Shown: positions 9,048 to 37,300 of the stretch, one piece after another
Layout of the letters: every line of letters starts with the position of its first letter
Position numbering within the stretch: position 1 is the stretch's first letter
Origin: Candidatus Kuenenia stuttgartensis
GTDB taxonomy: Bacteria > Planctomycetota > Planctomycetia > Planctomycetales > Planctomycetaceae
Length of the DNA stretch: 40,413 nucleotides
Reading direction: 5' to 3'
NCBI GenBank assembly: GCA_945904015.1
Contig: CAMDPK010000057.1
Location: forward strand, 1-40,413
The notes under the pieces: model-generated
What the model was told of the DNA's origin: nothing
Databases searched by the model: none
Seen by the model: the letters and a program-made list of their open reading frames with translations, nothing else
Made by a program: the position numbers and the translations under genes

Positions 9048-9135
9048 GTAGAACGGACGCCTACATCCGTTCTGTTTTCGATCTGCGATCGACATCATTC
9101 ATGAAATTTCGAACGGACGTCGGCGTCCGTTCTAC
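9048..9135. repeat. Double-hairpin element (GAACGGACG family)
   Basis: The outer 14 nt GTAGAACGGACGCC (9048-9061) is a perfect inverted copy of 9122-9135. Each arm is also a hairpin: GAACGGA with TCCGTTC in the left arm and GAACGGACG with CGTCCGTTC in the right. The intervening 35-45 nt are AT-rich and could hold promoter elements for the rightward oxidoreductase gene. It lies in the divergent gap between two genes. The outer GTAG...CTAC ends are shared with the elements at 18918 and 30177. Confidence 0.85.
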
Positions 9136-16318: not shown

Positions 16319-18916
16319 ATGCGCGTTGCATCGTGGTTGAGCTTTCTGGGTGTCGGTGCATTGCAGACGAAATCGGTGCGAAGCCGTTCAACTCGCCGAC
16401 GAGTTCGTCGCGGACATGGCACAGCAGCGTTTTCGGGTTCGCCGATGATGCGGGAGTCGAACAATTCGCTCGGCTCCGCGATTGAATCTTTGGAGCAGCG
16501 GACCGTCCCGTCGGCCTTCGCGCTGTTCATCGACACGACCGGTGAATTGAACATCTCGATGACTTCTGCGGACAACGTCACGATCGGCGTGGATCCCGCG
16601 ACCAGCAATGTCCAAGTGCTGGCGAATGGTTCTCCGCTACTTTCTATGCCGACGATCACTCCGGACCTCGTACTGACGCTGATCGTCACCGGCAGCGATG
16701 GGAACAACACGCTCGACCTGAGCGGTGTCGACAGCAGCTTCTCGAATCTTACGTCGATTCAAGTCAGCGGCGGCGATGGCAACGACACAATCCTCGGCAG
16801 CGCGACGATCGCGAGCATTCTGAATGGCGGCAACGGAGCGGACACGATCACCGGTGGCACGGCGGGCGATTCGCTGCTCGGCAGTGACGGTAACGACCGC
16901 ATCAACGGTGATGCAGGCAACGACACGATCAATGGCGGCAACGGAGCGGACACGGTCAACGCCGGACTCGGCAACGATTCGGTGCTTGGCGGCGATGGAA
17001 CCGACAGCCTCAACGGTGAGGACGGAGACGACTCGGTCTACGGCAACAATGGAAACGACGTGTTGAATGGTGATTCGAATGGCGGCACCGGCAACGATGT
17101 GCTCGACGGCGGTTCTGGCAACGACACGCTCAACGGTGGCGATGGCAACGACAATTTGAATGGCGGTCTCGACAACGATTCGCTGCGCGGCGGCGATGGC
17201 AGCGACACGCTCTTCGGTGGAGCCGGCAACGACATCGGTCTCGGCGAAGCGGGCAACGACACCGTCAACGGCCAGGCGGGCAACGACACACTCGAAGGGG
17301 GAGCCGACAACGATTCGGTCGATGGCGGCACGCAGGACGACAAGATGTTCGGCGATGACTCCGCGGGAACCGGAAACGGCACCGACACACTCGCGGCCGG
17401 CGACGGGAACGACATGGCCGATGGCGGGGCGGGGGACGACACGATCGGCGGCGGCATCGGAAACGATGCGTTGCTCGGCGGTGATGGCAACGATTCAGTC
17501 TCCGGCGAAGGGGGCAACGATACGATCCAGGGAGGCAACGGAAACGACACGACGCTCGGCGGCGACGGCAACGACAAGGTTTTTGGCGATGACTCACTCG
17601 GTCTGACAACCGGCGATGACCTTATCAACGGCGGGGCAGGCAATGATTCGCTCGTCGGGGGTGGCGGCAACGACAGCTTCTTCGGCGGTAACGGCAACGA
17701 CACGCTCGAAGGAGGCAGTGGGGACGACACGCTCAACGGACAGGGGGGCAACGACAGCAACAACGGCGGGACTGGTTCGAACTCCATCGTCTTCGATCCG
17801 AACGACGGGACCGACACAGCCGGTAACGGCAGCGGCGGCGGATCGGACACGCTCGTGCTGGCCGGCACGAACGCGGCCGACTCGATTTCGATCACGCAGT
17901 CTGGCGGCTTCGTCAAGGTCGCGGTCGGAGCGAACTCGATCACGGTGGCTCCGAATGTTTCGCACGTCATCATCAACGGCGGCAACGGCAACGACACCAT
18001 CACGATTGGGGCTCTGGATTCCGTCAGTCCGGTGTTCATCGAGATCAACGGCGAATTGGGCAACGATGTGCTCAACGGCGGCGGCTCGGCGATCGGTGGT
18101 GTGCGGCTGCTGCTCAACGGCGGCGAGGGGAATGACGTTCTCACCGGCACGGGAGCGATCGATTCGCTGTTTGGCGGCAACGGGAATGACTCGATCCTCG
18201 GCGGTGGCGGCAACGACATCATGCTGGGAGACGGCGGCAACGACACTCTCAAGGGCGAGGCCGGCAACGACAACATCACCGGCGGCGACGGCGACGATGT
18301 TGTCCAAGGCGGAGCCGGCAACGACACGATCGACGGCGGCATCGCCAACGACAACCTTGATGGTGGCGAAGGCAACGACACGATCTCCGGCAGCGACGGT
18401 GCCGACACGATCACCGGAGCGAACGGCAACGACTCGCTGCGCGGCGGAGTCGGCGGTGATTCGATCAACGGCGGCAATGGCAACGATTCGATCGACGGCG
18501 GCGAGAGCGACGACACGCTGATCGGACTGGCCGGCAACGACAAGCTCTTCGGCCGTGACGGCAACGACTACATCGACGGCGGCGATGGTGATGACACTGC
18601 AAACGGCGGCAACGGCGATGACACGGTGATCGGCGGTCTCGGCAACGATCTGCTCGGCGGCGAGGACGGCAACGACACGCTCAACGGCGGAGCCGGCAAT
18701 GACTCGATGCTTGGCGGTGACGGCGATGATTTGATGTTCGGTGGAGCGGGCATTGATTCGATGCTCGGCGGCGACGGAGACGACACACTCAATGGTCAAG
18801 GCTCAGTCGATGTGCTCGCCGGCAACGAAGGTGACGACACGATTTCCGACGAGGCCGAGATCAACGAGTCGTTCACGTTCCCGGCCTCAGTGCTGTCGGC
18901 ACTCGACACGCTGTGA
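16319..18916 (+). CDS. RTX-like calcium-binding repeat surface protein
   Basis: About 865 residues. ATG 16319 is preferred because GAGGA lies 9 nt upstream; an earlier TTG is in frame. The N-terminus is basic and contains [17 protein letters not shown], the 'LE-x-R-x-x-PSA' motif common near the start of planctomycete surface proteins. Residues about 140-480 and 575-840 are arrays of the calcium-binding nonapeptide GGxGxDxUx (for example [11 protein letters not shown]), which form Ca-loaded parallel beta rolls. They are separated by a non-repeat segment (about 485-570, [19 protein letters not shown]). No type I secretion genes lie nearby and no classic C-terminal secretion signal is visible. 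The repeat bias creates a long antisense open frame that is not a gene. Confidence 0.92.
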
Positions 18917-20891: not shown

Positions 20892-21983
20892 TCAGACGGC
20901 TTCCACTGCACCGCTTCGCCCCGAACGCAGCGCCGCTTGCGTGAAGTCGAACACCGGCAGAGCACATTCGGGCGGAGCAACCGGCGGCGCGCCGAGCAGC
21001 AGTTGGTCGAGGAACGCGCTGACCGGATTGCCGAGGCGATCCAGTTCGGGATGCGTCAGCGGGCTGATTCCCATCGCGGCTTGCATTCGCTGATCGGCGA
21101 CCGTCAGCGGCTCGAGCGTGTTTTTGCGGCCGAGCCAGATTTGCCAGTCGCGCACGAGCAGATCGGCGTGCTCGCAGTGAAAATGAAAGTCCTCGCGAAA
21201 CGTCTGGGCGTGCCCGGTGAAGTGCATCGTCAGCAGCACGTCCCGTTCGAGCTGAGCGGAGAGGGACGAGACGATCTCGACTCGGCTGCCGCACGTCTGA
21301 TTTCGCGCGAATACGTCCAGTGGATTCAGACCGGTGAGAAAAAACGCGAGGTCGATCTTGTGGCTGCCGGCATCGCCGATGAACCCGCCGAGATTGATCG
21401 CTGGATCATCTCGCCACGTCCCGCCGATCGTTTGTTGCCAGCGTTCCGAGTTGATCGACGTCACGGCTCGCACCGCTCCCCAGCGGCCGGATTGGATTTC
21501 GTCTCGCAACACGCGATAGACCGGCCAGGTCCGCCGTTGATACGCAACCGACAGCACCGGCCCGTTCGAGTGGGGCAGGTTTTCAACCTGCCCGGCCACC
21601 GGAGAACGGGCAGGTTGAAAACCTGCCCCACGACATTCGTCGATCAGTGTCAGTAGATGCTCGCGCCGATCAGCGAGCGGCTTTTCGCAGAGCACATGCC
21701 AGCCGCGTGCTCGGCAGGCGCGGATGTGGTCGAAGTGCAGCGACGTCGGCGTGCCGATGATCACAGCGTCCACTTCGGTCTGAGTCAGTAAATCCTCGAA
21801 CTTCGTGAAACCGCAAGCATCCGGCGCGAGTTCGCGACGCAGCGACTCCGCCGCGTCCGCTTGAGTGTCGAACAGGGCAACAACTCGGCCTCGGCCGTCG
21901 GCGATCAGACGTTCGATGTGCAGTCGCCCCATGCGGCCACAGCCGAGGATCGCGAAACGCAGGGGTGCCGGTGAGTCCGTCAT
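20892..21983 (-). CDS. Gfo/Idh/MocA family oxidoreductase (carries an in-frame repeat)
   Basis: A 363-residue NAD(P)-dependent oxidoreductase. The N-terminal Rossmann motif is FAILGCGRMGRLH (about 10-22), the second-strand region VVALFDTQADAAESL, then DAVIIGTPTSLHFDH and the catalytic WHVLCEKPLADRR with the family lysine. The C-terminal half (INLGGFIGDAGSHKIDLAFF) holds the conserved Asp/His of the substrate side. Between LIDECRG and VLSVAYQRR there are about 20 extra residues (GFQPARSPVAGQVENLP) encoded by a palindromic element (21570-21631) that reads through in frame. The gene starts 10 nt after the redoxin-cytochrome gene stop and is probably co-transcribed with it. The substrate is unknown; inositol or sugar derivatives are typical. 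Confidence 0.9.
   Translation of the reverse strand: MTDSPAPLRFAILGCGRMGRLHIERLIADGRGRVVALFDTQADAAESLRRELAPDACGFTKFEDLLTQTEVDAVIIGTPTSLHFDHIRACRARGWHVLCEKPLADRREHLLTLIDECRGAGFQPARSPVAGQVENLPHSNGPVLSVAYQRRTWPVYRVLRDEIQSGRWGAVRAVTSINSERWQQTIGGTWRDDPAINLGGFIGDAGSHKIDLAFFLTGLNPLDVFARNQTCGSRVEIVSSLSAQLERDVLLTMHFTGHAQTFREDFHFHCEHADLLVRDWQIWLGRKNTLEPLTVADQRMQAAMGISPLTHPELDRLGNPVSAFLDQLLLGAPPVAPPECALPVFDFTQAALRSGRSGAVEAV
21570..21631. repeat. GGGCAGGTT double-hairpin element inside an oxidoreductase gene
   Basis: A 25-nt left arm (21570-21594, GTGGGGCAGG...CTGCCCG) and its perfect inverse (21607-21631) flank a 12-nt spacer. Each arm is also a hairpin, with stem GGGCAGGTT and loop TTC or GAA. The copy lies wholly inside the Gfo/Idh coding region without creating a stop. 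Sister copies are at 25393, 28034 and 29896. Confidence 0.95.
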
Positions 21984-21993
21984 GGCGGCGGGA

Positions 21994-23988
21994 TCATCGT
22001 TTCTTTTCGATGGCTTTGCGAACTTCTTCGACGGTCAGTTTTTCGTCGCCGTCGATATCAAGCCGCTTGAAGATCGGCATTAACTTGGGCGGAACTTCGC
22101 TCGGCGTGAGGATGCCGTCTTTGTTCACATCGAGTTGCTGAAGTTGTTCCACGAGTTGTTTGAGGATGGCCGGCGGCAAGTTGGAGCCGAGGGCTTTTGG
22201 TTTGGATTCCGCCGATGGCTTGCGACTCGCCTCAAAAGCGTCTCGCGGGACCGCGACGTCGAAGTAGCCGATCAGCATCTCATCCCATGTCTGCTCGCCC
22301 CAGCGGACGGTTGCGTTGGGGTTCGGGTTGTTGAGGTTGTTCTCCGAGTTGTCGTAGTGGGCGACGACATGCATCGAACTGCCAGCCGGGATGCTCAGCG
22401 GCTCGGCGAGCTGATACGACGTCTGCCAATTGAAGTCGTAGCGCGGCACATCGAGCACCCTCTCTTTGCGGCCGTCGGCTGTTTGCAACTCGTAGCGGAA
22501 CGATCTGCCGCGGACGTGCATGTGCGGCATCAAATTCAGCAGTTGCACATCGACCGGGGATTTCGGCGAACTCGCTTCGTGGCGTGAATTGTTCGCGTTC
22601 GGCGGAATGATCAAGCCCCCCGTCTTGCGAGCCTCGCTGGTCATCACCGCGTGAGTGACCGAAGCTTCATCGGCGAACAGCAAACCGATGCGACTGGTGT
22701 CTTTCGTCGCTTTTCCGTTGGGCGTGTAGTGGACTTGGAAGATCAACTTCGCTCCGGCCGGCAGCAGCTTGGCCATGCCGGTTGGGTATTGCTGCGGCAG
22801 AAATCCGGGGACGTAGGCGGCGAGAAACGCTCCCTCGCCGTCGAACTTGCGCAGCTCGGAATCGGTTTTCGCGAAGACCAAAACGTGATGCACGACCGAG
22901 CGTTCGCCCGGCTGAATCTCGGCGGCCGTGACCCATTTGTCCTCGGTCAACTTCGGGTCCACGGAGAAGTATTGATACCGCACTGTCCCGGAGGCAGGCA
23001 CGTCATACGGCTTGTCACGCATGGCGACGATCAGGTCCGGCTCGCGCGGCAACTGCCAGCCGTCGGTGAACGACTTCGGCGTCGGCAAGTCGTTGCGGTC
23101 CCCTTCGGGAGCACCCGCTTTGACCCAATCAAGCAGCATTCGCTTTTCGTTATCTGGCAGGTTGCGAGCGTTCGCGAACTTGCCGTGATCGGGACTCGCG
23201 TGCCAAGGTGGCATCCGGTTGTCTTCGACCACTTCAGCGATCGTCTCGGCCCAACCGGCGACTTCGTCGTAGCTGGTCATCGCGAACGGAGCGACCTGAC
23301 CCGGCCGATGACAATTCACGCAGCGGTTCTGCAAAATCGGAGCAACGTGCTTCGAGTACGTCACCTCGGCCCCCCGCTTCGGCTCGCGGACTTTGCCGAT
23401 GAAGCAACCTTCGACCTCGGTTGTCGCGACGCTGACGGGCTTGCCGGCGAGCAGTTCTTCGATCGCAATCTTCAGATCGCTCCGCTTCGCAGTCTCGCGG
23501 CGATAGCCGATGCCGTCTTGATCGTCGATGCGGCCGACGTACCGGATCGCTCGCTGCTGATCGAGCACCACGACTTCCGGCGTGCGGATCGCTCCGGCGG
23601 CATCTGCCAATTTGTTGCCAGCATCTTTGAGCAACTGGAAGGCGACATCTTGCTCTTTCGCCTGCGCGGCAAGATCGGCGAGCGAGTCTTGCCGGTTCGA
23701 GTTGATGCCGAGTACGGCGACGCCGCGCGGCTCGAATTCTTTGGCCAGCGTGTTGAGCTTCGTCACCGCCAACTTGGCCAGCGGGCATTCGGTGCCGAGA
23801 AACGCCAGCACGATGACCGGCTTGTCCTTCAACTCCGTCAGCGACACGCTTGCGCCGCGATAGTCGGTGAGAGCCGCGTCGGAGACAACTCGTCCCAAGC
23901 GATCTTTGCCAGAGGCTTCTGCAGGCTGAGTCAATCCATTCGACAACACCAGAACCAAACAGACGCAGATCGCAAAACCGTGACGCAT
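21994..23988 (-). CDS. Exported redoxin / cytochrome c-like / copper-monooxygenase-like protein with EF-hands
   Basis: A 664-residue multi-domain exported protein with a strong AGGAGG site before the ATG. It has a Sec signal (1-25). Residues about 30-190 are a thioredoxin-fold redoxin with a single Cys68 (FLGTECPLAKL). Residues about 208-300 are a cytochrome c-like segment with heme motif CVNCH (223-227) and RMPPWHA (about 259-264), possibly providing the Met ligand. Residues about 315-590 resemble the copper type II monooxygenase (PHM-like) fold: VVHHVLVFAK, FQVHYTPNG and LMPHMHVRG give the His/Met ligand pattern. The end has two EF-hands (DVNKDGILTPSE, DIDGDEKLTVEE). Electrons could pass from heme to copper in one chain (inference). 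The oxidoreductase gene follows after 10 nt. Confidence 0.88.
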   Translation of the reverse strand: MRHGFAICVCLVLVLSNGLTQPAEASGKDRLGRVVSDAALTDYRGASVSLTELKDKPVIVLAFLGTECPLAKLAVTKLNTLAKEFEPRGVAVLGINSNRQDSLADLAAQAKEQDVAFQLLKDAGNKLADAAGAIRTPEVVVLDQQRAIRYVGRIDDQDGIGYRRETAKRSDLKIAIEELLAGKPVSVATTEVEGCFIGKVREPKRGAEVTYSKHVAPILQNRCVNCHRPGQVAPFAMTSYDEVAGWAETIAEVVEDNRMPPWHASPDHGKFANARNLPDNEKRMLLDWVKAGAPEGDRNDLPTPKSFTDGWQLPREPDLIVAMRDKPYDVPASGTVRYQYFSVDPKLTEDKWVTAAEIQPGERSVVHHVLVFAKTDSELRKFDGEGAFLAAYVPGFLPQQYPTGMAKLLPAGAKLIFQVHYTPNGKATKDTSRIGLLFADEASVTHAVMTSEARKTGGLIIPPNANNSRHEASSPKSPVDVQLLNLMPHMHVRGRSFRYELQTADGRKERVLDVPRYDFNWQTSYQLAEPLSIPAGSSMHVVAHYDNSENNLNNPNPNATVRWGEQTWDEMLIGYFDVAVPRDAFEASRKPSAESKPKALGSNLPPAILKQLVEQLQQLDVNKDGILTPSEVPPKLMPIFKRLDIDGDEKLTVEEVRKAIEKKR

Positions 23989-24200
23989 CGGAACCTCCTG
24001 AAATGTGATCGGCCAACTCGGCGATCATGAAACACCGCTCATACCCGGAATGTGTCGTCACGGATTCAACGGATCAAGCGACATCTGCTTCCCCGAATGT
24101 GCTCCGCCACCCGGAAATCCGATTTGACCTGATTGGCCCGCAGACTCGATAATCCGCCGCGAGCGACGGTCAAAAATCTCATGGATCGGGAGAGTTCAAC

Positions 24201-25391
24201 ATGCGAAACGGTTGGATGAGCGTGCTGATTCTGGCGGCCTGCCTGAGCGTTCCGGCTCAGCAGACGCAGGCCGGGCATCTGCACTTTGGGATGAATTACT
24301 ACGCACAGCCGCATTGCGTTTCCAACTATTACGGCTGGAACGCTCCGTGGTCGGGCTACGGATACGGCAGCGGCTTCTCGGTTTCGACGGGTGGGTTTTC
24401 GAGCGGATTTTATCGCTCCGGTTTTTACGGCGGTGGATATTCGCCTTGGGGTTGGGCACCGACGGTCTATCCGGTTTATCCCGGAGTCATCGTGCAGCAG
24501 ACGACCGTGCCGATCGCCCTGACGATTGTGAATCCCCCACGCGATCCAGCGTTCGTTCGGCCACGAGTGGTGGCCGCCGATCCGTTCCAGCCGAAGCAGC
24601 CCAACGTGTTTGACGTCGTGCAACAACACGCCGAGCGGCGCGGGAACCTTCCCCCTCCACCGGATGACGAGACCGTCGTTCGGACGGTCAGCGGATCGTC
24701 ACGAGTGGGCAAGGAACGCAGTAAAAAGTTCCAAGCCGAAGGGGATCGCTGGCTGCACGAAGGCCAAAACGTCAAAGCGTATTTGCGATACCTCGAAGCT
24801 CAGCGCGAGGCCGAGGATCGGGGCGAGGTTTATTTCCGCCAGGCGTTCGCGCTGGTCGCGATGGGCCGGTACTCGCACGCGGTCTCGAAACTGAAGCGCG
24901 GGTTGCAGGTCGATCCGCAGTCGGCCCGAACCGGTCAGACGCTCGACGCTGTGTTCGGCGTCGAGAATGTCGATCACAAAGTCGATTACCTGCAACGTGT
25001 CGCCGATTGGGCAAACGCCGACGTTCGCGATCCCGATCGCCTGTTCCTGATGGGTGTGCTGCTGCACTTCGATGAGGACTCGCGATCTGGTGAGTTCCTC
25101 AACGCCGCTTGGAAATTGGCCGGACGCGGGCCGCACATTCAAGCCTTTCTGCAAGCTCCGGGTTCACCGCCGAAGGAAGCTCCCGCCGCACCGATCGCGA
25201 ACCGTCGTGAGTTGCCGCCTCCTCCGGTGCCACGAGAAGAGCTGCCGGTCGAGGTTGAGGTTCGCCAGCCTCAGCCGCTCCCGCAACGGGATGCTCGTGG
25301 TCCCAAACTTCCCGCGCTGGAGGTTCCTCCGGAACCGGCTCGACGCCAGTTGATCCTGCCCGACGTCTACCTGCCGGAAGAGAACCGTTAA
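24201..25391 (+). CDS. Secreted protein with Gly/Tyr-rich N-terminus and TPR-like C-half
   Basis: A 396-residue protein with a GGGAG ribosome site and a Sec signal (MRNGWMSVLILAACLSVPAQ). Residues about 30-110 are rich in Gly, Tyr, Ser and Phe (YYGWNAPWSGYGYGSGFSVS) and look disordered or surface-exposed. Residues about 165-315 form helical TPR-like pairs (RWLHEGQNVKAYLRYLEAQR, YFRQAFALVAMGRYSHAV, KRGLQVDPQSARTGQTL), a protein-interaction scaffold. The C-terminal 70 residues are Pro-rich with charged spacing. There is no catalytic motif. A repeat element begins two bases after the stop. Likely envelope-associated; function unknown. Confidence 0.85.
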   Translation: MRNGWMSVLILAACLSVPAQQTQAGHLHFGMNYYAQPHCVSNYYGWNAPWSGYGYGSGFSVSTGGFSSGFYRSGFYGGGYSPWGWAPTVYPVYPGVIVQQTTVPIALTIVNPPRDPAFVRPRVVAADPFQPKQPNVFDVVQQHAERRGNLPPPPDDETVVRTVSGSSRVGKERSKKFQAEGDRWLHEGQNVKAYLRYLEAQREAEDRGEVYFRQAFALVAMGRYSHAVSKLKRGLQVDPQSARTGQTLDAVFGVENVDHKVDYLQRVADWANADVRDPDRLFLMGVLLHFDEDSRSGEFLNAAWKLAGRGPHIQAFLQAPGSPPKEAPAAPIANRRELPPPPVPREELPVEVEVRQPQPLPQRDARGPKLPALEVPPEPARRQLILPDVYLPEENR

Positions 25392-25392
25392 C

Positions 25393-25463
25393 GTGGGGCA
25401 GGTTTTCAACCTGCCCGGCTCTTTTTGAGGAAGCACAACGGGCAGGTTGAAAACCTGCCCCAC
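25393..25463. repeat. GGGCAGGTT double-hairpin element (intergenic copy)
   Basis: 25-nt arms at 25393-25417 and 25439-25463 are identical to those at 21570, separated by a 21-nt spacer. It starts two bases after the upstream TAA and ends 5 nt before the ATG of the glycosyltransferase gene, so it occupies the place where a ribosome-binding site would be. Confidence 0.95.
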
Positions 25464-25468
25464 GACTT

Positions 25469-26224
25469 ATGCCGCGAATGCTCATCACGCTCTGCACGTT
25501 CAACGAGTGCGAGAACCTGCCCAAGCTGATCCCCGACATCCACGCGGTCGCGCCGGATGCGGACGTGTTGGTGATTGATGACAACTCGCCCGACGGGACC
25601 GGACGGTTGGCCGATGAGCTGGCGACCCAAGACTCGCGGATCAAAGTTCTGCATCGGGCCGGCAAGTTAGGACTCGGCACCGCGACGGTTGCCGGATTTC
25701 GATTCGCCATCGAACAGGGCTACGAGCAAGTGCTCAACATGGATGCCGACTTCAGTCATCATCCGCGGCATCTGCCGGCGATCCGCGACTGCCTGAACCG
25801 CGTCGATGTCGCGATTGGCTCGCGCTACGTCCCCGGCGGCGGAGTGGTCGGTTGGAATTGGCGGCGGCACTTCATGAGCCGCGGCATCAATTTTTACGCG
25901 CGGCTGTTTCTCGGCCTGCGAACGCGCGACAACAGTGGCAGCTTCCGCTGTTATCGAGTCGCCAAGTTGGCCGAGATCGACTGGAGCCGCATTCGTGCTC
26001 GCGGCTACGCCTTTCAGGAAGAGTTGCTGTACCGCTGCCGCGCCGTCGGTTGCTCGTTCGAGGAAACGCCGATCACGTTCGAGGATCGCCGCTTCGGCAC
26101 GTCGAAGATCAACTGGAAAGAGTCCGTCGCCGCGTTGTGGGTGATTTTTCGGCTGGGTCTCGACAGACTGTGTCGCGTGCCTGTGCGTGCCCCTCACCCC
26201 TCGCCCCTCACCCCTCGCCCCTAG
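25469..26224 (+). CDS. Polyprenol-phosphate mannose synthase-like glycosyltransferase (GT2)
   Basis: A 251-residue GT2 enzyme of the DPM1 type, which transfers mannose (or another sugar) from a GDP/UDP donor to polyprenyl phosphate at the cytoplasmic face. Motifs are LITLCTFNECENLPKL at 5-20, DDNSPDGT at 37-44, MDADFSHHP at 91-99 (the DxD-like metal site) and RFGTSKINWKES near the end. It lacks the C-terminal transmembrane segments of longer relatives. No Shine-Dalgarno precedes the ATG because a palindromic element ends 5 nt upstream. The last about 10 residues (APHPSPLTPRP) are encoded by a 14-nt direct repeat rather than by family sequence. The histidine kinase gene starts two bases after the stop. 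Confidence 0.9.
   Translation: MPRMLITLCTFNECENLPKLIPDIHAVAPDADVLVIDDNSPDGTGRLADELATQDSRIKVLHRAGKLGLGTATVAGFRFAIEQGYEQVLNMDADFSHHPRHLPAIRDCLNRVDVAIGSRYVPGGGVVGWNWRRHFMSRGINFYARLFLGLRTRDNSGSFRCYRVAKLAEIDWSRIRARGYAFQEELLYRCRAVGCSFEETPITFEDRRFGTSKINWKESVAALWVIFRLGLDRLCRVPVRAPHPSPLTPRP
26190..26224. repeat. 14-nt direct repeat at the glycosyltransferase stop
   Basis: The unit CCCCTCACCCCTCG occurs at 26190-26203 and 26204-26217, followed by a partial third unit ending in the TAG stop. It encodes the C-terminal Pro-rich tail of the glycosyltransferase and immediately precedes the kinase ATG. It looks like one arm of a low-complexity element. Confidence 0.75.
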
Positions 26225-26226
26225 CC

Positions 26227-27246
26227 ATGTCTTACGCCCGCAAACGTCGCACGCTGCATTTGCCGATCACGCTGAGCATCGTCTTGATGGTGCTCAACGT
26301 CGTGCTGATGGTCTGTTGGATCGTCCTGCTGGCGAATTGGAGTGCCTGGAGCGCACTGACGATCGGGACGGTCGTGTTCGCACTGATCTTGGTGGTCTCT
26401 GGGTTTTATTTGTTCCTGACCGTGAAAGAGGTGCGGCTCAATCAGCGGCAGTCGAACTTCATCGACAGCGTGACGCACGAGTTGAAGACGCCGATCGCCT
26501 CGCTGCGGCTGTATCTCGACACGCTGCGGATGCGGCATGTTGAGCCTCGGCAGCAGGAAGAGTTTTTGAAGGTCATGGACGGCGAGTTGATCCGGCTGGA
26601 TCACTTGATCAACCAGTTGTTGGAGGTCGCTCGGCTGGACGCGATCGGGCAGGAGGCGGACCCAGAGGACATCGAACTCGAACCGCTGCTGCATCGCTGC
26701 GCCGAACTGGCGGCTCGGCATCACAAACAAGTCGTGGACGAGGTCTTCACGTTCGACATCGAGCCGGCGGTGATCCGAGCGAGGCGGATGCCGCTGGAGA
26801 TGATCTTCGGAAACTTGATCGACAACGCGATCAAGTACGGCGGAAATCCACCGCGAATCGACGTGCAAGTCCGCCTGACCGAAGACAGCCGAGTCATCAC
26901 GCAGATCACCGACAACGGCGAAGGAGTCGCTCCGCACCTGCGCAGCCGCATCTTCAAAATCTTTTACCGAGGCGGCAGCGAACTGGAACGCCGGCAGAAA
27001 GGGACCGGCGTCGGCCTGTACATCGTGCGAACGCTGGTCGGTTTGCTCAAAGGCAAGGTGCGCGTGCTGAATCGGCAAGTTGGGTCGGGCAGCCTGTTCG
27101 AGGTCAACCTTCCCGGCCGAGCGATCATCAGTGAGTCGCTCGACTCGTCGTCGTCAGAAGTCTCCGGTGAGCCGGAGGGCGTCAGCCCCCGGACCATCTC
27201 AAATTTCAAATCTCAAATTTCAGATCTCAAATCGTCCGGGGGCTGA
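26227..27246 (+). CDS. Membrane histidine kinase
   Basis: A 339-residue sensor kinase. The start at 26227 follows the glycosyltransferase TAG by two bases, so translation is probably by coupling; no ribosome site is visible. Two close transmembrane segments (about 12-36 and 44-66) leave almost no periplasmic sensor loop. HisKA begins at FIDSVTHELKTPIASL with phospho-acceptor His84. The ATPase domain has the N box NLIDNAIKYGG, G1 DNGEGVAP and G2 KGTGVGLYIV. The short loop suggests it senses the membrane or acts with another protein. The last about 26 residues (from GEPEGVSPRTI) are encoded by a palindromic repeat and are not kinase sequence. It is paired with the regulator gene 57 nt downstream. 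Confidence 0.94.
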   Translation: MSYARKRRTLHLPITLSIVLMVLNVVLMVCWIVLLANWSAWSALTIGTVVFALILVVSGFYLFLTVKEVRLNQRQSNFIDSVTHELKTPIASLRLYLDTLRMRHVEPRQQEEFLKVMDGELIRLDHLINQLLEVARLDAIGQEADPEDIELEPLLHRCAELAARHHKQVVDEVFTFDIEPAVIRARRMPLEMIFGNLIDNAIKYGGNPPRIDVQVRLTEDSRVITQITDNGEGVAPHLRSRIFKIFYRGGSELERRQKGTGVGLYIVRTLVGLLKGKVRVLNRQVGSGSLFEVNLPGRAIISESLDSSSSEVSGEPEGVSPRTISNFKSQISDLKSSGG

Positions 27247-27262
27247 CGTCGCCCGGCTCGCC
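27166..27262. repeat. Inverted repeat forming the kinase C-terminus
   Basis: The 29-nt left arm (27166-27194, GGTGAGCCGGAGGGCG...) is an imperfect inverse of 27234-27262, with about four mismatches. The spacer is a run of TCTCAAATTT-type direct words. The left arm and spacer are translated as the last residues of the kinase, and its TGA lies in the right arm (27244-27246). Confidence 0.9.
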
Positions 27263-27302
27263 AGTTGGTTTGCGGGCATTGCCCGTGTCAGGCGCACGTT
27301 TC

Positions 27303-28031
27303 ATGCGAATCTTGATCGTCGAGGATGAATCCGCACTGGCGGACGGCTTGAAGTTCAACTTCGAGCAGGAAGGCTTTGAAGCGGTTGTCGCCGGCGACGG
27401 AGATGTCGCGCTCAAGGCCTTCCGCCAGGCCGAGTCGCGGTTCAATCTCGTGTTGCTGGATTTGATGCTGCCGGGAATGAGCGGCTACGACATCTGTCGC
27501 GAGATTCGGCTGATCGACAAGCAAGTGCCAATCCTGGTCCTCAGCGCACGCACGCTCAGCGAGGATCGCACGGCCGGGTTCGACGCTGGCTGCGATCAAT
27601 ACATGAGCAAACCCTTCAATCTGAAGGAACTACTCAGCCGAGTTCGCAACTTGATCGAGCGGCACCCGATCGACAACTCGTCGCTGCCGGCCGTGCCACG
27701 CGAACCGGAACTGGAGTCAGACGTCCGTCAGTTCGGCGACGCCAAGATCGACTTCAGCCGCTTCGAGCTGACGGTTCACGGTCAAACGCACGACTTGACC
27801 ACGATGGAAGTGCAACTGTTGCGGTACTTCCTGGACAACGACGGCAAAGTGCTGTCGCGCGGACAAATCCTGGAGGACGTGTGGGGCAGCGATTCGAACG
27901 TGATGCCACGGACCATCGACAACTTCGTGCTGCGGCTCCGCAAGCTGATCGAGCCAAATCCGTCGGCCCCGCGCCACATCCTGTCCGTGCGAGGCACCGG
28001 CTACCGCTTCCTCACCAAGCCGGAAGCGTGA
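27303..28031 (+). CDS. OmpR/PhoB-family response regulator
   Basis: A 242-residue two-component regulator starting at ATG 27303 (MRILIVEDESALADGL). The receiver domain has the acidic pair Glu7/Asp8, phospho-acceptor Asp53 in LLDLMLPGM, the Ser81 switch and Lys103 in MSKPFNLKELL. The C-terminal winged helix ends with the usual PRTIDNFVLRLRKLIE recognition region and SVRGTGYRFL wing. It should be the cognate partner of the kinase gene just upstream, binding DNA as a dimer on phosphorylation. Targets cannot be told from the sequence. Its TGA is two bases before a GGGCAGGTT element. Confidence 0.96.
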   Translation: MRILIVEDESALADGLKFNFEQEGFEAVVAGDGDVALKAFRQAESRFNLVLLDLMLPGMSGYDICREIRLIDKQVPILVLSARTLSEDRTAGFDAGCDQYMSKPFNLKELLSRVRNLIERHPIDNSSLPAVPREPELESDVRQFGDAKIDFSRFELTVHGQTHDLTTMEVQLLRYFLDNDGKVLSRGQILEDVWGSDSNVMPRTIDNFVLRLRKLIEPNPSAPRHILSVRGTGYRFLTKPEA

Positions 28032-28033
28032 CC

Positions 28034-28087
28034 GTGGGGCAGGTTTGTAACCTGCCCGTGTGTTGGCAGGTTAAAAACCTGCCCCAC
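28034..28087. repeat. GGGCAGGTT double-hairpin element (diverged copy)
   Basis: The left arm at 28034-28058 has loop TGT instead of TTC. The right arm is diverged at its inner end (TTGGCAGGTTAAAAACC) and ends GCCCCAC at 28087. It lies two bases after the regulator stop and 7 nt from the convergent membrane-protein stop. The divergence suggests an older copy. Confidence 0.9.
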
Positions 28088-28094
28088 GAGACCG

Positions 28095-28664
28095 CTACTT
28101 CTTCTTTTTCTTGGCCTTCGTGTCCTTGGCTTTCTTTTTTGGAGCCTCTTCTTCTTCCTCCTCGTCCTCCATGTCCAGGTCCGCGAATTCATCGTCGCCG
28201 AGATCGAAGTCGGCGGTCTCGGCGCTGTCGATCGATTCCTCGTCGAGGTCGAACTCGGAACCTTCTGCGGCTTCCTCAAACTCGTCGCCTTCATCGGCAC
28301 CGGGCTTGATGCCTTCGCGTTCGAAGGCGTCGATGTCCTCTTCCTCGAAGCTTTCGCCGCGCGGAGTCTTGGGCGTTTCGACTCCTGCCTGTGCAGCGAC
28401 GCCTTCACCGTCCTCGCCAGCCTCAGCTTCCTCGGACTTCTTGCCTTTGTTGGGATCGTCGTAGAACGCGACCGCGTACAGCAGCGGCCAAACCACCGCC
28501 GCCAGCAAGACCAGCAAGCCCGTTGAGACCACGGCGATGCCCAACAGCGGCTTGTTCCAAAGGTCGTGCCGTGGAACGGTCAAGGCCGTCCCCAGCAAAT
28601 AACACAAGTAGCCCCCCGGCACCGCGGCGACGAGCGACAGCAGAATCAGATGCAGCTTTCTCAC
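28095..28664 (-). CDS. Membrane protein with long acidic tail ending in poly-lysine
   Basis: A 189-residue protein with a GTG start (a GGAAA lies about 7 nt upstream). Two hydrophobic spans occupy residues about 5-29 and 40-67. The remainder is extremely acidic (EEEDIDAFEREG, DLDEESIDSAETADFDLGDD, MEDEEEEEE) and then switches to a basic end (KKKAKDTKAKKKKK). No catalytic motif is present. The acidic and basic segments could bind each other, cations or ribosomal and nucleoid components, but this is only inference. It is convergent with the response regulator. I do not recognise the family. Confidence 0.75.
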   Translation of the reverse strand: MRKLHLILLSLVAAVPGGYLCYLLGTALTVPRHDLWNKPLLGIAVVSTGLLVLLAAVVWPLLYAVAFYDDPNKGKKSEEAEAGEDGEGVAAQAGVETPKTPRGESFEEEDIDAFEREGIKPGADEGDEFEEAAEGSEFDLDEESIDSAETADFDLGDDEFADLDMEDEEEEEEAPKKKAKDTKAKKKKK

Positions 28665-28705
28665 GGTCGGTTTCCGGCAAGGTCGGACGGCGAATCTCAG
28701 GACAT

Positions 28706-28799
28706 CAAGCTAGACGGAGGCTCCCCGATCCGGCAAGAGCCTGGTTCGAGACACACCATTCCGTGTCTTCGACTTCGGAGCCACGACGGCTCCAGCTTG
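28706..28799. repeat. Imperfect inverted repeat (CAAGCT...GGCTCC)
   Basis: CAAGCTAGACGGAGGCTCC at the left is matched in inverse by GGAGCCACGACGGCTCC plus AGCTTG at the right. The right arm is itself a hairpin (GGAGCC, loop ACGAC). It lies in the 304-nt divergent gap between the membrane protein and cinA, which contains no gene. Confidence 0.6.
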
Positions 28800-28856
28800 C
28801 GAAAACTTCTCGCCGCTTGAGCCACACGGATGACCGATACGACCGGCCGCGACGGC

Positions 28857-28962
28857 ACAGAAGGCAGAATGCAAAAGGCAAAAGGCAGCGAGGGCAGACA
28901 GGATGGCGGTCATTCATCAACATGCCGCTCTGACTGCCTTTTGCCTTCCGCCTTCTGACTTC
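28857..28962. repeat. Inverted pair of AAAAGGCA-type words before cinA
   Basis: The left arm ACAGAAGGCAGAATGC followed by AAAAGGCAAAAGGCAG is matched in inverse by CTGCCTTTTGCCTTCC followed by GCCTTCTGACTTC. The right arm ends about 7 nt before the cinA ATG, and no Shine-Dalgarno remains there. Confidence 0.8.
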
Positions 28963-28968
28963 CCAACC

Positions 28969-30180
28969 ATGCACGCTGAAATCATCGCCATCGGGACCGA
29001 ACTGACCACCGGAGCCAAGCTGGACACGAACAGCCAGTGGCTGAGCATCGAACTCGCCTCGGTCGGCATTCCGGTCTTGCTGCACACGACCGTCGCCGAT
29101 GACCTGCCGGCAAATTTGGAAACTCTGCGAGCGGCCGTGCGGCGATCGGACATCGTGCTCATCAGCGGTGGACTTGGCCCAACGCTCGACGATCTCACGC
29201 GACAGGTCTTGGCCGAGCTAGCCGGAGTGGAACTGGTGCTGCATGAGCCAAGCTTGCAGCACATCCGCGACATGTTCGCCAAACGCAAACGAATCATGCC
29301 GGAGCGCAACGTCATCCAAGCGATGTTTCCCGCCGGAAGCGAACCAATCGACAACCCGCATGGCAGCGCGCCGGGAATTTGGTGGGAATTTCCGCGGCCA
29401 GACGGGTCGAACTGTCTCATCGCCGCGATGCCGGGCGTTCCCAGCGAGATGAAGCCCATGTTCCGCGATCGCGTGCTGCCGCGACTTCCACGCTCCGACA
29501 AAGTCATCCGCCGCGCGCGAGTCAATTGCTACGGAGTCGGCGAATCGGCCTGCGAAGAGATGCTCGGCGACGTGACCGCTCGCGGCCGAGACCCCGAAGT
29601 CGGCATCACCGTCCACGAAGGAACGATCACGCTCCGCATCGAAGCTCACGGCGCGACCGAGTCCGAATGTGACGCGAAGATCGCCGCCACGAAACAACTG
29701 ATTCACGAGCGACTCGGCGAACTCGTCTTCGGCGAAGAGGACGAACAACTCGAAGAGATCATCGTCCGCGAGTTGAACCGCCGAGGTCAGACGGTCGCGT
29801 TCGCCGACGAAGTCACAGGCGGAGTGCTGTCGTTGTGGCTGACGGCTGTACCAGACAGCGAGACCTGTTTTTTGGGCGGAGTGATTGGCTCCGCCGTGGG
29901 GCAGGTTTTCAACCTGCCCGTTCCGGCCGGGCAGGTTGAAAACCTGCCCCACGAACGCGCTCGCCAACTGGCACAACAAACCCGCGAGCGATTCGGCTCT
30001 GACTTCGCGATTGCGATTGCCGGCTCATTGAAGACGGATGGAATCCCTCGACTCGGCCTCGCGCTGGCGGACTCGAACGGAGTCGAAGTGCAGGAGCACA
30101 TTCCCGTCGCCGATATCTCGTTTGCCCGCAACCGCGCAGCGAAGTCGGCCCTCGATCTGCTGCGGCTACGCCAATCGTAG
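28969..30180 (+). CDS. cinA: CinA-family protein with a repeat-invaded C-terminal domain
   Basis: About 403 residues, a usual CinA length. The start is ATG 28969, where similarity begins (MHAEIIAIGTELTTGAKLDTNSQ). The N-terminal MoaB/COG1058 domain is intact: VLISGGLGPTLDDLTRQVLAE, then NPHGSAPGIW and AMPGVPSEMKPM. The C-terminal domain should be a nicotinamide-nucleotide amidase, but the usual ESCTGG nucleophile motif reads DEVTGG, so the catalytic Ser/Cys are missing. Right after FLGGVIGSA it contains 19 codons (VGQVFNLPVPAGQVENLPH) encoded by a GGGCAGGTT element instead of the conserved 'YSNEAK' segment. The TAG stop is part of another element. Amidase activity is probably lost; the pyrophosphatase-like N-domain may still work. 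Confidence 0.88.
   Translation: MHAEIIAIGTELTTGAKLDTNSQWLSIELASVGIPVLLHTTVADDLPANLETLRAAVRRSDIVLISGGLGPTLDDLTRQVLAELAGVELVLHEPSLQHIRDMFAKRKRIMPERNVIQAMFPAGSEPIDNPHGSAPGIWWEFPRPDGSNCLIAAMPGVPSEMKPMFRDRVLPRLPRSDKVIRRARVNCYGVGESACEEMLGDVTARGRDPEVGITVHEGTITLRIEAHGATESECDAKIAATKQLIHERLGELVFGEEDEQLEEIIVRELNRRGQTVAFADEVTGGVLSLWLTAVPDSETCFLGGVIGSAVGQVFNLPVPAGQVENLPHERARQLAQQTRERFGSDFAIAIAGSLKTDGIPRLGLALADSNGVEVQEHIPVADISFARNRAAKSALDLLRLRQS
29896..29952. repeat. GGGCAGGTT double-hairpin element inside cinA
   Basis: 25-nt arms at 29896-29920 and 29928-29952 are identical to those at 21570 and 25393, with a 7-nt spacer. At 57 bp it is exactly 19 codons, so it stays in frame in cinA. No stop arises in the frame used. 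Confidence 0.95.
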
Positions 30181-30292
30181 CCCTGTTGCTCCGCGACAGG
30201 ACCGCCGAATGTCGAGCGGCCCTTCCGACGTCTCACAGCTTCATCGAGGTCTTTGGCCCTTCGGCTTTCCTGTCGCGGAGCGACAGGGCTAC
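30177..30292. repeat. Double-hairpin element shared by the cinA and pepT stops
   Basis: The outer GTAGCCCTGT (from 30177) and its inverse end ACAGGGCTAC (to 30292) flank two hairpins: stem CCTGTTGC with loop TCC at 30182-30200 and stem CCTGTCGC with loop GGA at 30269-30287. The outer TAG of each arm is the stop codon of a flanking gene: 30178-30180 for cinA and 30289-30291 (minus strand) for pepT. Confidence 0.9.
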
Positions 30293-34312: not shown

Positions 34313-37300
34313 TCACATTTGCGAGACGTTCGACGACGCCGCGTTCAACTCGTATGCGTGCGAGTACCACTGGAAGCCGAGCGGGTGAAAGTTCGCCGAG
34401 TGTTGGGCTTCGACGATGTTGTAGGCTCGGTTGCGGAAGACGCTGGCGACGCTCAGCGGTTCGGTCATGACCAGCCCGGCGTGGATGGCCGGATGGAAGT
34501 AACGGCGGAGGTTGAAACCGTTCTCATGCGCGAGGTTGTTGACTGCCGGAGTGACGATGATCTCCATGCGGTGCGGGTACTCGTAGATGATGATGTTGGG
34601 GAACGAGACCAGCCAATTGCCGGCGGAATCGGCGACGACTTGGCGATCGCCGAGCAATCGGCCGTCCGCGTCGTAAATCCGAGCGACCAAGGTGCTGCCC
34701 GGTTCGGTCAAGCCGCTGAAGACCGGATCGACCGGCAGCGGCGCGAGCGGCCGGCCGACGGTTTGTGTCTGTGGCATCAGCCACGCGACGCGCATGTCCT
34801 TCCAGTCGTGGAAGCTGTCGTAGGCGTAAACCTGCACGCGGTCGAAGTCACTGCCCACATTGTTCAGCGGCGTCGGATCGGTGCCATTCAGACCGTCATC
34901 GGTGACGGTCGCGGTCAGCGTGATCGACGGCGTCTGAGTGCTGATGTTGCTGCGAACCTGAGTGCTGACCGTCAAAGTCGTCGCCTCACCGGCCGCGAGG
35001 TCGCCGAGGTTCCAAGTGATCGTGCCGGCAACCGCGTCCACGACTCCGCCGTTCGTGGCAACGACATTTTGCAACACCATCACGGGGAAGCTCACCGTCA
35101 CGATGACTCCGTTGCCGTCTTGGTTGCCGTTGTTCACGACGTTGATTGTGTAGTTCAACGTGTCGCCGGGGCGGACGAGCGTTTCGCCATCGTCGATTGT
35201 GATGGCGTAATCGGGTTCCGCGTCGAGCGTGTCGGTGTCCGACGCGCTGTTGTCGCTGAGGTCCGGATCAGGGCCGTTCGCGCCGTCGTCCATGATCGAG
35301 GCGGAGAGCGTGAGGTCGTTCAAGCCGGAGGGCACAGCCGAGCGAACATCCGCCGTGACGGTGAAGGTGCGCGGATCGTTGGCCGGTAAGGCTCCGACAT
35401 TCCAAGTGATCGTGCCGGCCACGGCATCGACGATGCCGCCGTCGGAGGCGACGACGTTCGTCAGGATCGCAGTCGGAAAGCTGGCCGAGAGGATGACTCC
35501 GGTGCCGTTCTGCAAGCCGTCGTTGTTGAAGTTCACGAAGTAGGTCAGCGTCTCGCCAGGAGTCGCGGTGAGTTGCAGGTCGTCGATGCCGATGTCGTAC
35601 ATCGGCAGGGCATCGAGCGTGTTGGTGTCGGTCGCGGAGTCGTTGGTTGGGTCGAGGTCCGGGCCGTTCGTGCCGTCGTCGGTGATGGTCGCGATGTTGA
35701 CGATATCGTCCTGGCCGGCGACGGCGGGGTTGTCGATCAGCACCGAGAAGTTGACGTTGAACGACGCTCCGGCCGGCAGGCTGATGATCGAAAACTCGTA
35801 AACGTTGCCGCCGACGCTCGTCCAAGCGGGATCGCTGAATGCGGCGTTGAACGACGTGCCGACCGGAACCGTTTCGCTGACGATGACGTTCGTGGCCCCC
35901 TGCGTTCCGAGGTTGCCGACATTGAGCGTGTAGACGGTCCCTTGGCCGGGGCTGATCGAGTTCGTGAAGTCGGTCTTCGTCAGCCGCAGATCGGGCGCGG
36001 CATCGAGCGTGTCGGTGTCGTTCGCCGAGTTGTTCGCCGGAGTCGGGTCGGTTCCGTTCGCGAGGTCGTCGGTGATCGACGTCGAGTGCGTGAAGTCGTT
36101 CAACCCAGCAGCGACAGAACTCAGCACATCAGCCGTGACCGTGTAGGTCAGCGAGGTTCCGGCCGCGAGGCTACCGACGTTCCATGCAATCGAGCCAGTG
36201 GTCATGTCCACGACTCCGCCATTTGATGCGACGACGTTCGTGAGGACCGCCAGCGGGAACGAATTCGCGAGGACGACGCCGGTGCCGTCCTGCAAACCGG
36301 CGTTCGCGAACGTGATCGAGTACGTCAGCGACTGGCCGGTGGTCGCGCTCAGCACGCCGTCGTCGATGCTAATTTGGTAATCGGGCTGCGCAGCGAGCGT
36401 GTCGATGTCGGCAGCCGCGTTGTCGGCGGGCGTCAGATCGGCACCGTTGGTGGCGTCGTCCGTGATCGACGTCGAGTGCGTGAAGTCATCGAAGCCGGCG
36501 GGGATCGTGTCACGGACCTTCGCGGTGACGGTAAAGCTCCGCGACTCACCGGCCGCGAGGTTGCCAACGTTCCAGGTGATCGTTCCGGCAACGGCGTCGA
36601 CGATGCCGCCGTCGGACGCGACGACGTTTTCGAGGATTGCCGTTGGGAACGTGTCGCTGACGACGACTCCGGTCCCCTCTTGATTGCCGGCGTTCAGGAA
36701 CGAAACCGAGTAGCTCAGCGATTGACCGGGAGCGACGGCACTCTCGCCGTCGGTGATGGCGATGCGATAGTCGGGGGTCGCGTCGAGTGTGTCCGTGTCG
36801 GCGGCCGCGTCATCGCTCGGAGTCGGGTCGGGGCCGTTCGCCAGGTCGTCCGTGATCAACGTCTCGTGCGTGAAGTCGTCGATGCCGGCCGGGACCGAGT
36901 CGCGGACTTTCGCGGTGACGGTGAAGCTCCGCGAATCGCCGACGGCGAGAGTGCCGATATTCCAAGTGATCGTCCCGTCGACCGCATCGACGACACCTCC
37001 GTCGGACGCAACGACATTTTCGAGAATCGTCGTCGGGAACGTGTCAGAGACGACGACGCCCGTGCCGTCTTGATCGCCGCCGTTCGAGAAGTTGATCGTG
37101 TAGCTCAGCAGTTGGCCGGGGACAACGACCAACTCGCCGTCGTCGATCGTGATCTGATAATCGGGCGACGAGACGAGTGTGTTCGTGTCGGTGGCCGAGT
37201 TGTCGCCGGGGTTGGGATCAGAACCATTCGCGCCGTCGTCGCTGATCGCCACCGTGTTGACGATGTCACTCTGACCGGGCACCGCGGGCGAGTTGACCGT

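What the first reader, a model, noticed from the sequence alone, without database searches (positions are those of the whole stretch)
21570..29952. Multi-copy GGGCAGGTT double-hairpin element, four copies in 8.4 kb
Seen directly: copies at 21570-21631, 25393-25463, 28034-28087 and 29896-29952 share 25-nt arms (three copies identical, one diverged) in inverted orientation, each arm being itself a 9-bp stem with a 3-nt loop. Spacers are unrelated in sequence and vary in length (12, 21 and 7 nt in the three identical copies), so the arms are conserved but not the centre. This is the layout of BIME/REP pairs or MITEs. Identical arms imply recent spread or gene conversion. Two copies are inside genes.
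Basis: partly seen in the sequence, partly recalled or inferred. Interest (0 to 1): 0.75.

Follow-up and report, generated by a model that had tools for sequence, protein, structure and literature searches.

The report
Palindromic DNA inserts coding protein linkers
A lake planctomycete genome carries many copies of a short double-hairpin DNA element that often sits inside genes without breaking their reading frame, so it adds a recurring peptide to unrelated proteins, and related species sometimes carry a different palindrome at the same spot.

Summary
The four pairs are real, at the stated coordinates, and belong to a large family: 318 hairpin arms in the 7.43 Mb genome. In 1.17 Mb read closely there are 100 inverted pairs and about 6 single arms. 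The anatomy is that of REP doublets (REPIN/BIME): GTGG foot, hairpin, inverted pairing, target WC^GW.

Recent spread is not the rule: 8 of 10 compared sites also hold such a pair in another species, and same-family arms there (0.93 identity) are better conserved than spacers (0.73) or flanks (0.76). At one site (E4) an arm changes between two sister families (CAGG/CACG) while the spacer stays. 43 of 99 testable pairs have coding flanks, and 39 of those 43 keep the frame (p=6e-15); 29 of the 39 read VGQVxNLP...GQVxNLPH or its sister form. At one site in an AcrB-like gene 9 of 9 relatives carry other inserts, frame kept.

No RAYT transposase flanked by these arms was found in the loci read. Intragenic REP dimers and in-frame Rickettsia palindromic elements are in print, and GTAG doublets here do it too, less often, so this is a new variant of a known kind.

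The parts
21570..21594 (+). E1 left arm (GTGG foot + hairpin)
21595..21606 (.). E1 spacer, 12 nt
21607..21631 (-). E1 right arm, reverse complement of left arm
   Evidence: empty site in 8 relatives, filled in G002
20892..21983 (-). Gfo/Idh/MocA oxidoreductase gene holding E1 in frame (net +63 nt against seven empty relatives, +60 against G001); read GAGFQPARSPVAGQVENLPH, so only one arm is in the common frame
25393..25417 (+). E2 left arm, 1 nt after the stop codon of ORF 24201-25391
25439..25463 (-). E2 right arm
   Evidence: empty in 5 relatives, filled in G010 and G002, another family in G007
28034..28057 (+). E3 left arm, 2 nt after the stop codon of ORF 27270-28031
28065..28087 (-). E3 right arm (diverged loop)
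   Evidence: same site holds CACG, GGACGCTG or GGAGTCGC palindromes, single hairpins, or nothing, in relatives
29896..29920 (+). E4 left arm
   Evidence: arm family differs in G005, G009
29921..29927 (.). E4 spacer core, 7 nt
   Evidence: with its edges identical in G009 and G007
29928..29952 (-). E4 right arm
28903..30180 (+). cinA-like gene; E4 encodes VGQVFNLPVPAGQVENLPH in frame

Best explanation
It is a GTGG-footed REP-doublet (REPIN-like) family. The unit is two perfect hairpins in inverted orientation, feet outward, round a free spacer. Shown: the unit is the pair; it sits between C and G of WC^GW; it is absent or filled at the same position in related species; inside genes it keeps the reading frame and is read mostly as VGQVxNLP...GQVxNLPH in either orientation, because the element is inverted-symmetric. 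Shown on few sites: at sites older than the species, arms stay near consensus in genomes with many copies and decay or collapse to one hairpin where copies are few; at E4 an arm changes family (CAGG/CACG) while spacer and site stay. Inferred: mobilisation on single-stranded DNA by a RAYT-type (HUH/Y1) transposase acting in trans, now or in the past; renewal of arms by exchange with other copies (ectopic gene conversion or foot-specific cutting and joining); purifying selection removing frame-breaking copies, so that tolerant protein linkers gather successive palindromes.
For: 318 arms; 308 GTGG-footed readings of the pattern (148+160; a hairpin with a foot at both ends counts twice). 100 pairs against about 6 single arms in 1.17 Mb. 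Flank logo of 100 pairs: -2 A/T 85, -1 C 91, +1 G 89, +2 A/T 70. In frame 39 of 43 (p=6e-15), in the same direction in 12 flank/threshold settings, from 7 of 7 to 44 of 49; on random genome stretches the method reads the frame as continuous in 1797 of 1839. Across species, length differences at 7 coding sites are multiples of 3 in 60 of 64 comparisons, at 3 intergenic sites in 6 of 20. Same-family arms 0.93, spacer 0.73, flank 0.76 identity (n=42). Family dominance differs by species, e.g. CAGG:CACG 308:55 in G000, 55:239 in G004, 0:15 in G008, and only 21 of 1408 readings are mixed. E4 left arm is CACG in G009 and G005 but CAGG in G000, with spacer identical (G009) or one base different (G005). 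Copy number against arm mismatches: rho=-0.77, p=0.009, n=10 genomes.
Against: No RAYT with these arms as its own flanks at 8 of 8 Y1_Tnp hits of the own genome, at 54 of the 91 hits of the genus that were read (own 8 included), or at 30 of 34 in four other genomes; CASG hairpins do occur elsewhere in six of those loci (L054, L102, L106, L114, L117, L223). So the enzyme is inferred. Spacers are unrelated between copies, which is not expected of a freshly copied unit. In different-family species pairs the spacer is only 0.56 identical on average (n=51), so arm switch with spacer kept is the exception, shown at E4 alone. Apart from stem pair 9-19 (the family difference), 59 stem cells are broken and 7 compensated. 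The copy-number correlation has no phylogenetic correction and is not significant on E4 alone (p=0.28). E1 in G000 and G002 looks like two insertions. One of the 39 in-frame copies has a stop codon inside (L246:5079). GTAG doublets in genes are also more often in frame than not (11 of 17), so frame keeping is not special to this family.
Confidence: 0.65

Rival explanations
1. Re-insertion only: there is no arm conversion; tolerant sites (gene ends, protein linkers with WCGW) are hit again and again by whatever palindrome family is active, and old copies are lost by excision or slippage.
For: B1 in the AcrB-like gene carries other inserts in 9 of 9 relatives; E1 is filled only in G000 and G002, from different clades, with spacer identity 0.61; E2 and B2 carry another family in G007; spacers are only 0.56 identical when arm families differ; short intergenic gaps leave few places to insert.
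Against: E4 keeps its spacer while one arm changes family (G000 against G009, G005); arms are intact at sites old enough to have lost them (about 9 changes expected at four sites, 1 seen in G000).
Confidence: 0.33
2. The hairpins are kept for function: transcription terminators, mRNA-end stabilisers or DNA-topology sites at gene ends.
For: Several intergenic copies lie within a few bases of stop codons (E2 1 nt, E3 2 nt).
Against: At least 43 of 99 copies have coding flanks, 39 of them in frame; presence varies between close species; a terminator does not need arms of two discrete sequence families (inference).
Confidence: 0.1
3. The encoded peptide VGQVxNLP...GQVxNLPH is itself selected as a protein module.
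For: 36 of 39 in-frame copies read the first arm in the same frame, 29 of 39 both arms.
Against: WC^GW sites fall on codon boundaries in 65% of cases and other frames can meet stops; expected share about 0.80, p=0.03 only. The host proteins tested are of different families and other palindromes give other peptides at the same sites.
Confidence: 0.05
4. A MITE of a classical DDE insertion sequence with these terminal repeats.
For: Short inverted-repeat element without a gene.
Against: No target-site duplication visible at the E1 and E2 empty sites, though both have small further flank changes; each arm is itself a perfect hairpin. A full-length copy was not searched for directly.
Confidence: 0.07

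Closest known systems
REPIN / BIME (REP doublets; Bertels and Rainey 2011, PMC3116915, passages read)
   Same: Two inverted REPs with a spacer, pair as the unit, predicted single-strand hairpin, high copy number.
   Different: Spacer length and sequence are free here (whole element 47-112 nt, mode 57), where that paper reports preferred distances of 71 and 110 bp; at least 43 of 99 copies have coding flanks; no RAYT flanked by these arms found.
GTAG/GTGG REPs of RAYT (TnpA-REP) systems (PMC3733652, PMC6006769, PMC8266576)
   Same: Tetranucleotide foot (GT[AG]G) 5' of a hairpin; HH dimers; intragenic dimers encoding 20-30 residues reported; Planctomycetes named among hosts.
   Different: Sites compared across about ten species here show re-use by different families with frame kept, and at E4 an arm-family switch at a conserved spacer; I did not see this in the section and passages read (the nearest is two REPs at about the same place in recB of two Xanthomonas species, PMC3733652).
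Rickettsia palindromic elements (RPE; reviewed in PMC10969869, passages read)
   Same: Palindromic repeats inserted in frame in unrelated protein genes.
   Different: RPEs are about 150 bp according to the review; this element is mostly about 57 nt, GTGG-footed, doubly hairpinned; different phylum.

Membership tests
REP / REPIN | Short hairpin with 5' GTAG or GTGG foot | tested here: met
   318 arms; 308 GTGG-footed readings
REP / REPIN | High copy number, dispersed | tested here: met
   12 of 12 genomes of the genus, 26 of 150 genomes and 11 of 55 genera of the order have arms of the S..S pattern
REP / REPIN | Inverted doublets as the unit | tested here: met
   100 pairs against about 6 single arms
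REP / REPIN | Mainly extragenic | tested here: inconclusive
   Of 99: 50 intergenic or unclear (C2 and C3, coding by comparison, fall in this class), 6 with flanks on opposite strands, 43 with coding flanks on one strand; about 90% of the first 438 kb is coding by my model, so intergenic DNA is still favoured per base
REP / REPIN | Dedicated RAYT gene flanked by the same REPs | tested here: not met
   genome 91.7% complete and 37 of 91 genus hits not read, so absence is not proven. I therefore say it is built like a REPIN, not that it is a proven RAYT-borne one
REP / REPIN | Cleavage of the foot by TnpA-REP | not testable with these tools
   -
Rickettsia palindromic element | In-frame insertion in unrelated protein genes | tested here: met
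   39 of 43; host families
Rickettsia palindromic element | Sequence relation to RPE families | not tested
   No RPE sequences were fetched
MITE of a DDE transposon | Target-site duplication | tested here: inconclusive
   None visible at the E1 and E2 empty sites, but both sites have small further flank changes

The most novel reading that the evidence does not exclude
Protein linkers and gene ends act as docking places in which one palindromic element is exchanged for another, even of an unrelated family, by a foot-recognising single-strand nuclease, with arms of resident copies overwritten by the genome's dominant family; proteins of this genus are thus being re-written in frame by turnover of selfish palindromes.
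Probability: 0.2. Interest if true: 0.8.

Novelty: new variant of a known kind. Interest (0 to 1): 0.55.

Why it matters
It gives a setting in which gain, loss, collapse, arm switching and coding use of REP doublets can be followed at orthologous sites across about ten species, which makes the old question of whether REPs are kept by gene conversion (Higgins 1988, seen only in reference lists) directly testable. It also shows a route by which non-autonomous palindromes add and replace peptide segments in proteins such as DNA polymerase I, an AcrB-type transporter, a GTPase and CinA.

Tried and rejected
RAYT search: the 8 Y1_Tnp genes of the own genome were read with 1.5 kb flanks (one, L023, is cut short by its contig end); none carries these arms. 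One (L022) is flanked by GTAG-CCCTGTCGC REPs and is itself interrupted by a GTGGCACAG pair, another REP family. Relatives gave Y1 genes flanked by GTAG REPs (for example L102, L105, L108), none with CASG arms as their own flanks. CASG hairpins elsewhere in the loci read: L054, L102 (the nearest, about 0.3 kb beyond the gene's own GTAG doublet), L106, L114, L117. In G133 a CACG pair lies in frame inside a Y1 gene (L223); taken as one more insertion, not as a cognate REP.

General hairpin correction as the cause of arm conservation: rejected as the main cause, because outside stem pair 9-19 there are 7 compensated and 59 broken cells.

Selection on the peptide as the cause of the uniform frame: weakened by the codon-phase expectation.

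A test on element length alone (multiple of 3) is weak: Fisher p=0.007, on counts I entered by hand, opposite-strand cases pooled with intergenic ones; the flank-frame test is the one used.

Free element length is not unique to this family: GTAGGATGGGCACT doublets run 50-89 nt and GTAGACCGGACGCC 50-91, while GTAGGTCAG and GTAGCCACG are tight.

E4: three comparisons (G003, G004, G007) are not multiples of 3, but there the downstream anchor lies past the gene's stop codon; anchored nearer, nine of ten E4 copies are 57 nt and G001's is 63. G002 at C3 differs by 7 nt and is unexplained.

The tree has weak nodes (0.205, 0.687), so losses and gains were not counted on it. A search for a solved relative of the AcrB-like protein at E 1e-50 found none, so the place of B1 in that fold is not shown. 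One exact match in viral contigs was not followed. The AlphaFold2 model of cinA (12 sequences, mean pLDDT 76.7) puts the E4 residues (310-328) in a mostly coil stretch between a strand and a helix, pLDDT about 66-68: supporting only.

Full report
Observation. The four inverted pairs E1 (21570-21631), E2 (25393-25463), E3 (28034-28087) and E4 (29896-29952) are present as described. The arm pattern occurs 8 times in the window with 0.18 expected. Each pair folds as one long stem in single-stranded DNA.

Extent. The genome that holds the window (G000, 7.43 Mb, 286 contigs, 91.7% complete) has 318 arms GGCAGGTTnnnAACCTGCC and none in the reversed control; the pattern with GTGG before it has 308 readings, 148 + 160 (a hairpin with a foot at both ends counts twice, here and below). 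CAGG arms occur in 11 of 12 genomes of the genus and a sister arm, GTGGGGCACGTT...AACGTGCC, also in 11 of 12. CAGG:CACG counts differ strongly: G000 308:55, G010 163:39, G007 67:8, G006 63:65, G002 77:72, G004 55:239, G005 47:10, G009 42:22, G003 5:0, G011 8:1, G001 1:25, G008 0:15. Hairpins with one half of each kind are rare: 1408 readings in all, 836 + 551 pure, hence 21 mixed. In the order, 26 of 150 genomes and 11 of 55 genera have arms; outside the genus only G133 (146) and G134 (45) have many. Relatives with names are planctomycete MAGs, some with lake names in their titles.

Unit and target. In 1,172,194 bases of G000 (61 loci: the window and 60 stretches, most of them chosen because they hold known copies) there are 100 pairs with feet outward and about six unpaired arms. 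Element length runs from 47 to 112 nt, 57 nt being the mode (25 of 100). Two GTAG families in the same DNA are tight in length (GTAGGTCAG, 14 pairs, interquartile range 81-83; GTAGCCACG, 7 pairs, 65-65), others are not (GTAGGATGGGCACT 50-89, GTAGACCGGACGCC 50-91). Spacers are unrelated: 76 of 4950 spacer pairs share an 8-mer, many of those shown through the conserved CG-rich edges. Loops of the two arms agree in 75 of 100 pairs, 55.75 expected. Arm families within a pair: CAGG/CAGG 84, CACG/CACG 10, CACG/CAGG 4, other 2. The flanks read [AT]C^...^G[AT].

Coding insertion. A coding model that looks only at the 120 nt on each side finds coding flanks on the same strand for 43 of 99 testable pairs (one of the 100 lies at a locus edge; 6 have flanks on opposite strands, 50 are intergenic or unclear, among them C2 and C3, which comparison shows to be coding). 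The reading frame continues across the element in 39 of 43 (1/3 expected, p=6e-15); one of the 39 has a stop codon inside the element. The direction of the result holds over 12 settings, from 7 of 7 to 44 of 49, and on random genome stretches the method finds continuity in 1797 of 1839. Of the 39, 29 read both arms as VGQV[FS]NLP-linker-GQV[EG]NLPH or, for the sister family, VGHVxNVP...GHVxNVPH, small variants included; 36 read the first arm in that frame; E1 reads only its second arm so. This uniform frame is mostly what WC^GW target phase and stop avoidance would give (expected 0.80, seen 36 of 39, p=0.03). Control: seven GTAG families in the same DNA have 11 in frame and 6 out of frame of 78; the difference in in-frame share (39 of 99 against 11 of 78) has p=2e-4, but GTAG copies in genes also tend to be in frame (11 of 17). 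Hosts include a Gfo/Idh/MocA oxidoreductase (E1), cinA (E4), an AcrB-family transporter (B1), a glycosyltransferase (B2), a GTPase (C1), DNA polymerase I (C2), a secretin-like protein (C3) and BatA. In cinA the element stands where distant relatives have the YSNEAK-like stretch; the genus also has DEVTGG where they have ESCTGG, so the domain looks degenerate, and the outgroup genes L129 and L131 already lack that stretch (the catalytic role of these residues is recalled).

Orthologous sites. Ten G000 sites were compared with up to 11 relatives. E1: filled in G000 and G002, empty in 8. E2: filled in G000, G010 and G002 with related spacers, empty in 5, another palindrome in G007. E3, right after a stop codon: CAGG in G000, CACG in G009 and G004, GGACGCTG type in G002 and G007, GGAGTCGC type in G010, single hairpins in G005 and G011, empty in G003. 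E4: present in all ten genomes compared; arms CAGG/CAGG in G000, G011 and G007, CACG/CAGG in G005 and G009, CACG/CACG in G010, G002 and G004, decayed in G003 and G001. B1: a CASG pair in G000 only; 9 of 9 relatives carry other inserts, 7 of them called inverted repeats by my finder, G004 and G007 of one family, all differing from G000 by multiples of 3 nt; no empty form was seen. B2: pair in G000, collapsed single hairpin in G005, another family in G007, no insert in nine others. B3: G000 and G009 share it; other sequence in G006, G003 and G011. C1: CAGG pairs in G000, G006 and G010, CACG in G002 and G004, a decayed CACG-like pair in G009, collapsed or truncated in G005, G011 and G007, another family in G003, none in G001. 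C2: six genomes share it, three lack it. C3: five genomes have the pair, G005 has a truncated one, four lack it. Across the seven coding sites 60 of 64 length differences are multiples of 3, against 6 of 20 at the three intergenic sites (the four exceptions are discussed under tried and rejected).

Age and renewal of arms. Among same-family species pairs at shared sites (n=42) arms are 0.93 identical, spacers 0.73, flanks 0.76; among different-family pairs (n=51) arms 0.84, spacers 0.56, flanks 0.77. E4, C1, C2 and C3 have a pair or its remnant in both G000 and its sister G005 (tree). At 10% flank divergence about 9 changes would be expected in G000's arms at these four sites; 1 is seen (P about 0.001), whereas G005 has 2 and 6 changes at E4 and C2, a collapsed C1 and a truncated C3. 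The calculation is rough and the sites were picked in G000 by arms with at most four mismatches each. Over ten other genomes, mean arm mismatches fall with copy number (rho -0.77, p 0.009; no phylogenetic correction; unequal site numbers, four genomes with one site; not significant on E4 alone). The clean arm switch is E4: G000 and G009 have the same spacer and the same right-arm family, but the left hairpin is CAGG in one and CACG in the other, both halves changed. At C1 the spacer of G000 is the exact reverse complement of that of G006 and G010, 7 informative bases, so the element was probably inverted there. In 159 arms from the loci held at that time, 31 of 38 compensated cells come from the CAGG/CACG pair and the other seven stem pairs have 7 compensated and 59 broken cells, so two discrete families, not general compensation, explain the covariation.

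Mechanism. Foot, hairpin, pairing, no visible target duplication at the two empty sites read, and WC^GW insertion fit single-strand transposition by a RAYT-like enzyme (PMC8266576: outline and passages read; PMC6006769 and PMC3116915: passages). No RAYT with these arms as its own flanks was found among 8 of 8 Y1_Tnp hits of the own genome, 54 of 91 in the genus (own 8 included), and 30 of 34 in four other genomes; Y1 genes flanked by GTAG REPs are present in the genus. The enzyme is therefore inferred. Frame keeping is taken as purifying selection after insertion.

Known or new. Intragenic REP dimers that encode 20-30 residues, and REPs at about the same place in recB of two Xanthomonas species, are in print (PMC3733652, section 15 read in full, other parts as passages); in-frame Rickettsia palindromic elements are in print (PMC10969869, passages). 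Searches of the held library with the terms REPIN + planctomycet (7 papers, all listed), REPIN + in-frame + coding (12 of 15 listed), planctomycet + palindromic repeat + coding sequences (12 of 24 listed), and repetitive extragenic palindromic + planctomycetes + transposase (2 papers) gave, by title, abstract start and the passages read, no paper that describes this family or site re-use by different families with frame kept. Subscription papers are mostly not held. The verdict is a new variant of a known kind.

Noticed in passing
window 30177-30292 and 9048-9135: Two GTAG-footed doublets of other families (GTAGCCCTGT..., GTAGAACGGACG...).
   Followed up: partly
L022 1444-2262 (G000:C5): A RAYT-like Y1 gene in pieces, flanked by GTAG-CCCTGTCGC REPs and interrupted by a GTGGCACAG doublet.
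   Followed up: partly
L138 1059-1154 and the same site in L177, L179-L185, L187: In an AcrB-family gene each of ten species carries its own insert at one codon site, mostly palindromic, all keeping the frame; G004 and G007 share a family.
   Followed up: yes
L223 1942-1988 (G133): A CACG doublet in frame near the start of a Y1 transposase gene.
   Followed up: partly
window 16677-18841: 27-nt period repeats in a large ORF (16301-18916 +), 9-residue period, like calcium-binding RTX repeats (recalled).
   Followed up: no
window 34313-40267 (-): 1984-aa ORF with 390-nt repeats (8 copies listed) and 675-nt repeats (3 copies listed).
   Followed up: no
L142 1-79 (G000:C6 start): A roughly 75-nt repeat that sits at the ends of many contigs of several genomes, probably breaking assemblies.
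   Followed up: no
L021 1309-1977: Y1-type protein ending in repeated TRSVSEGERSPNAQ segments, another in-frame repeat.
   Followed up: no
L120, L121: Two contigs titled Candidatus Kuenenia stuttgartiensis match the window's cinA at 93% protein identity, so the titles look wrong.
   Followed up: no
regions of the window, L138 and L142 in relatives: Further inverted-repeat families (GGGGTCGGGAGTCTTTTT..., ACTAACCCGAAGCG..., TTTGGAGTGCGG..., GGCGAGCGGGGGGCG...) that take each other's place at the same sites between species.
   Followed up: partly
L267 11335-11357: One viral contig has a single exact arm of the family.
   Followed up: no
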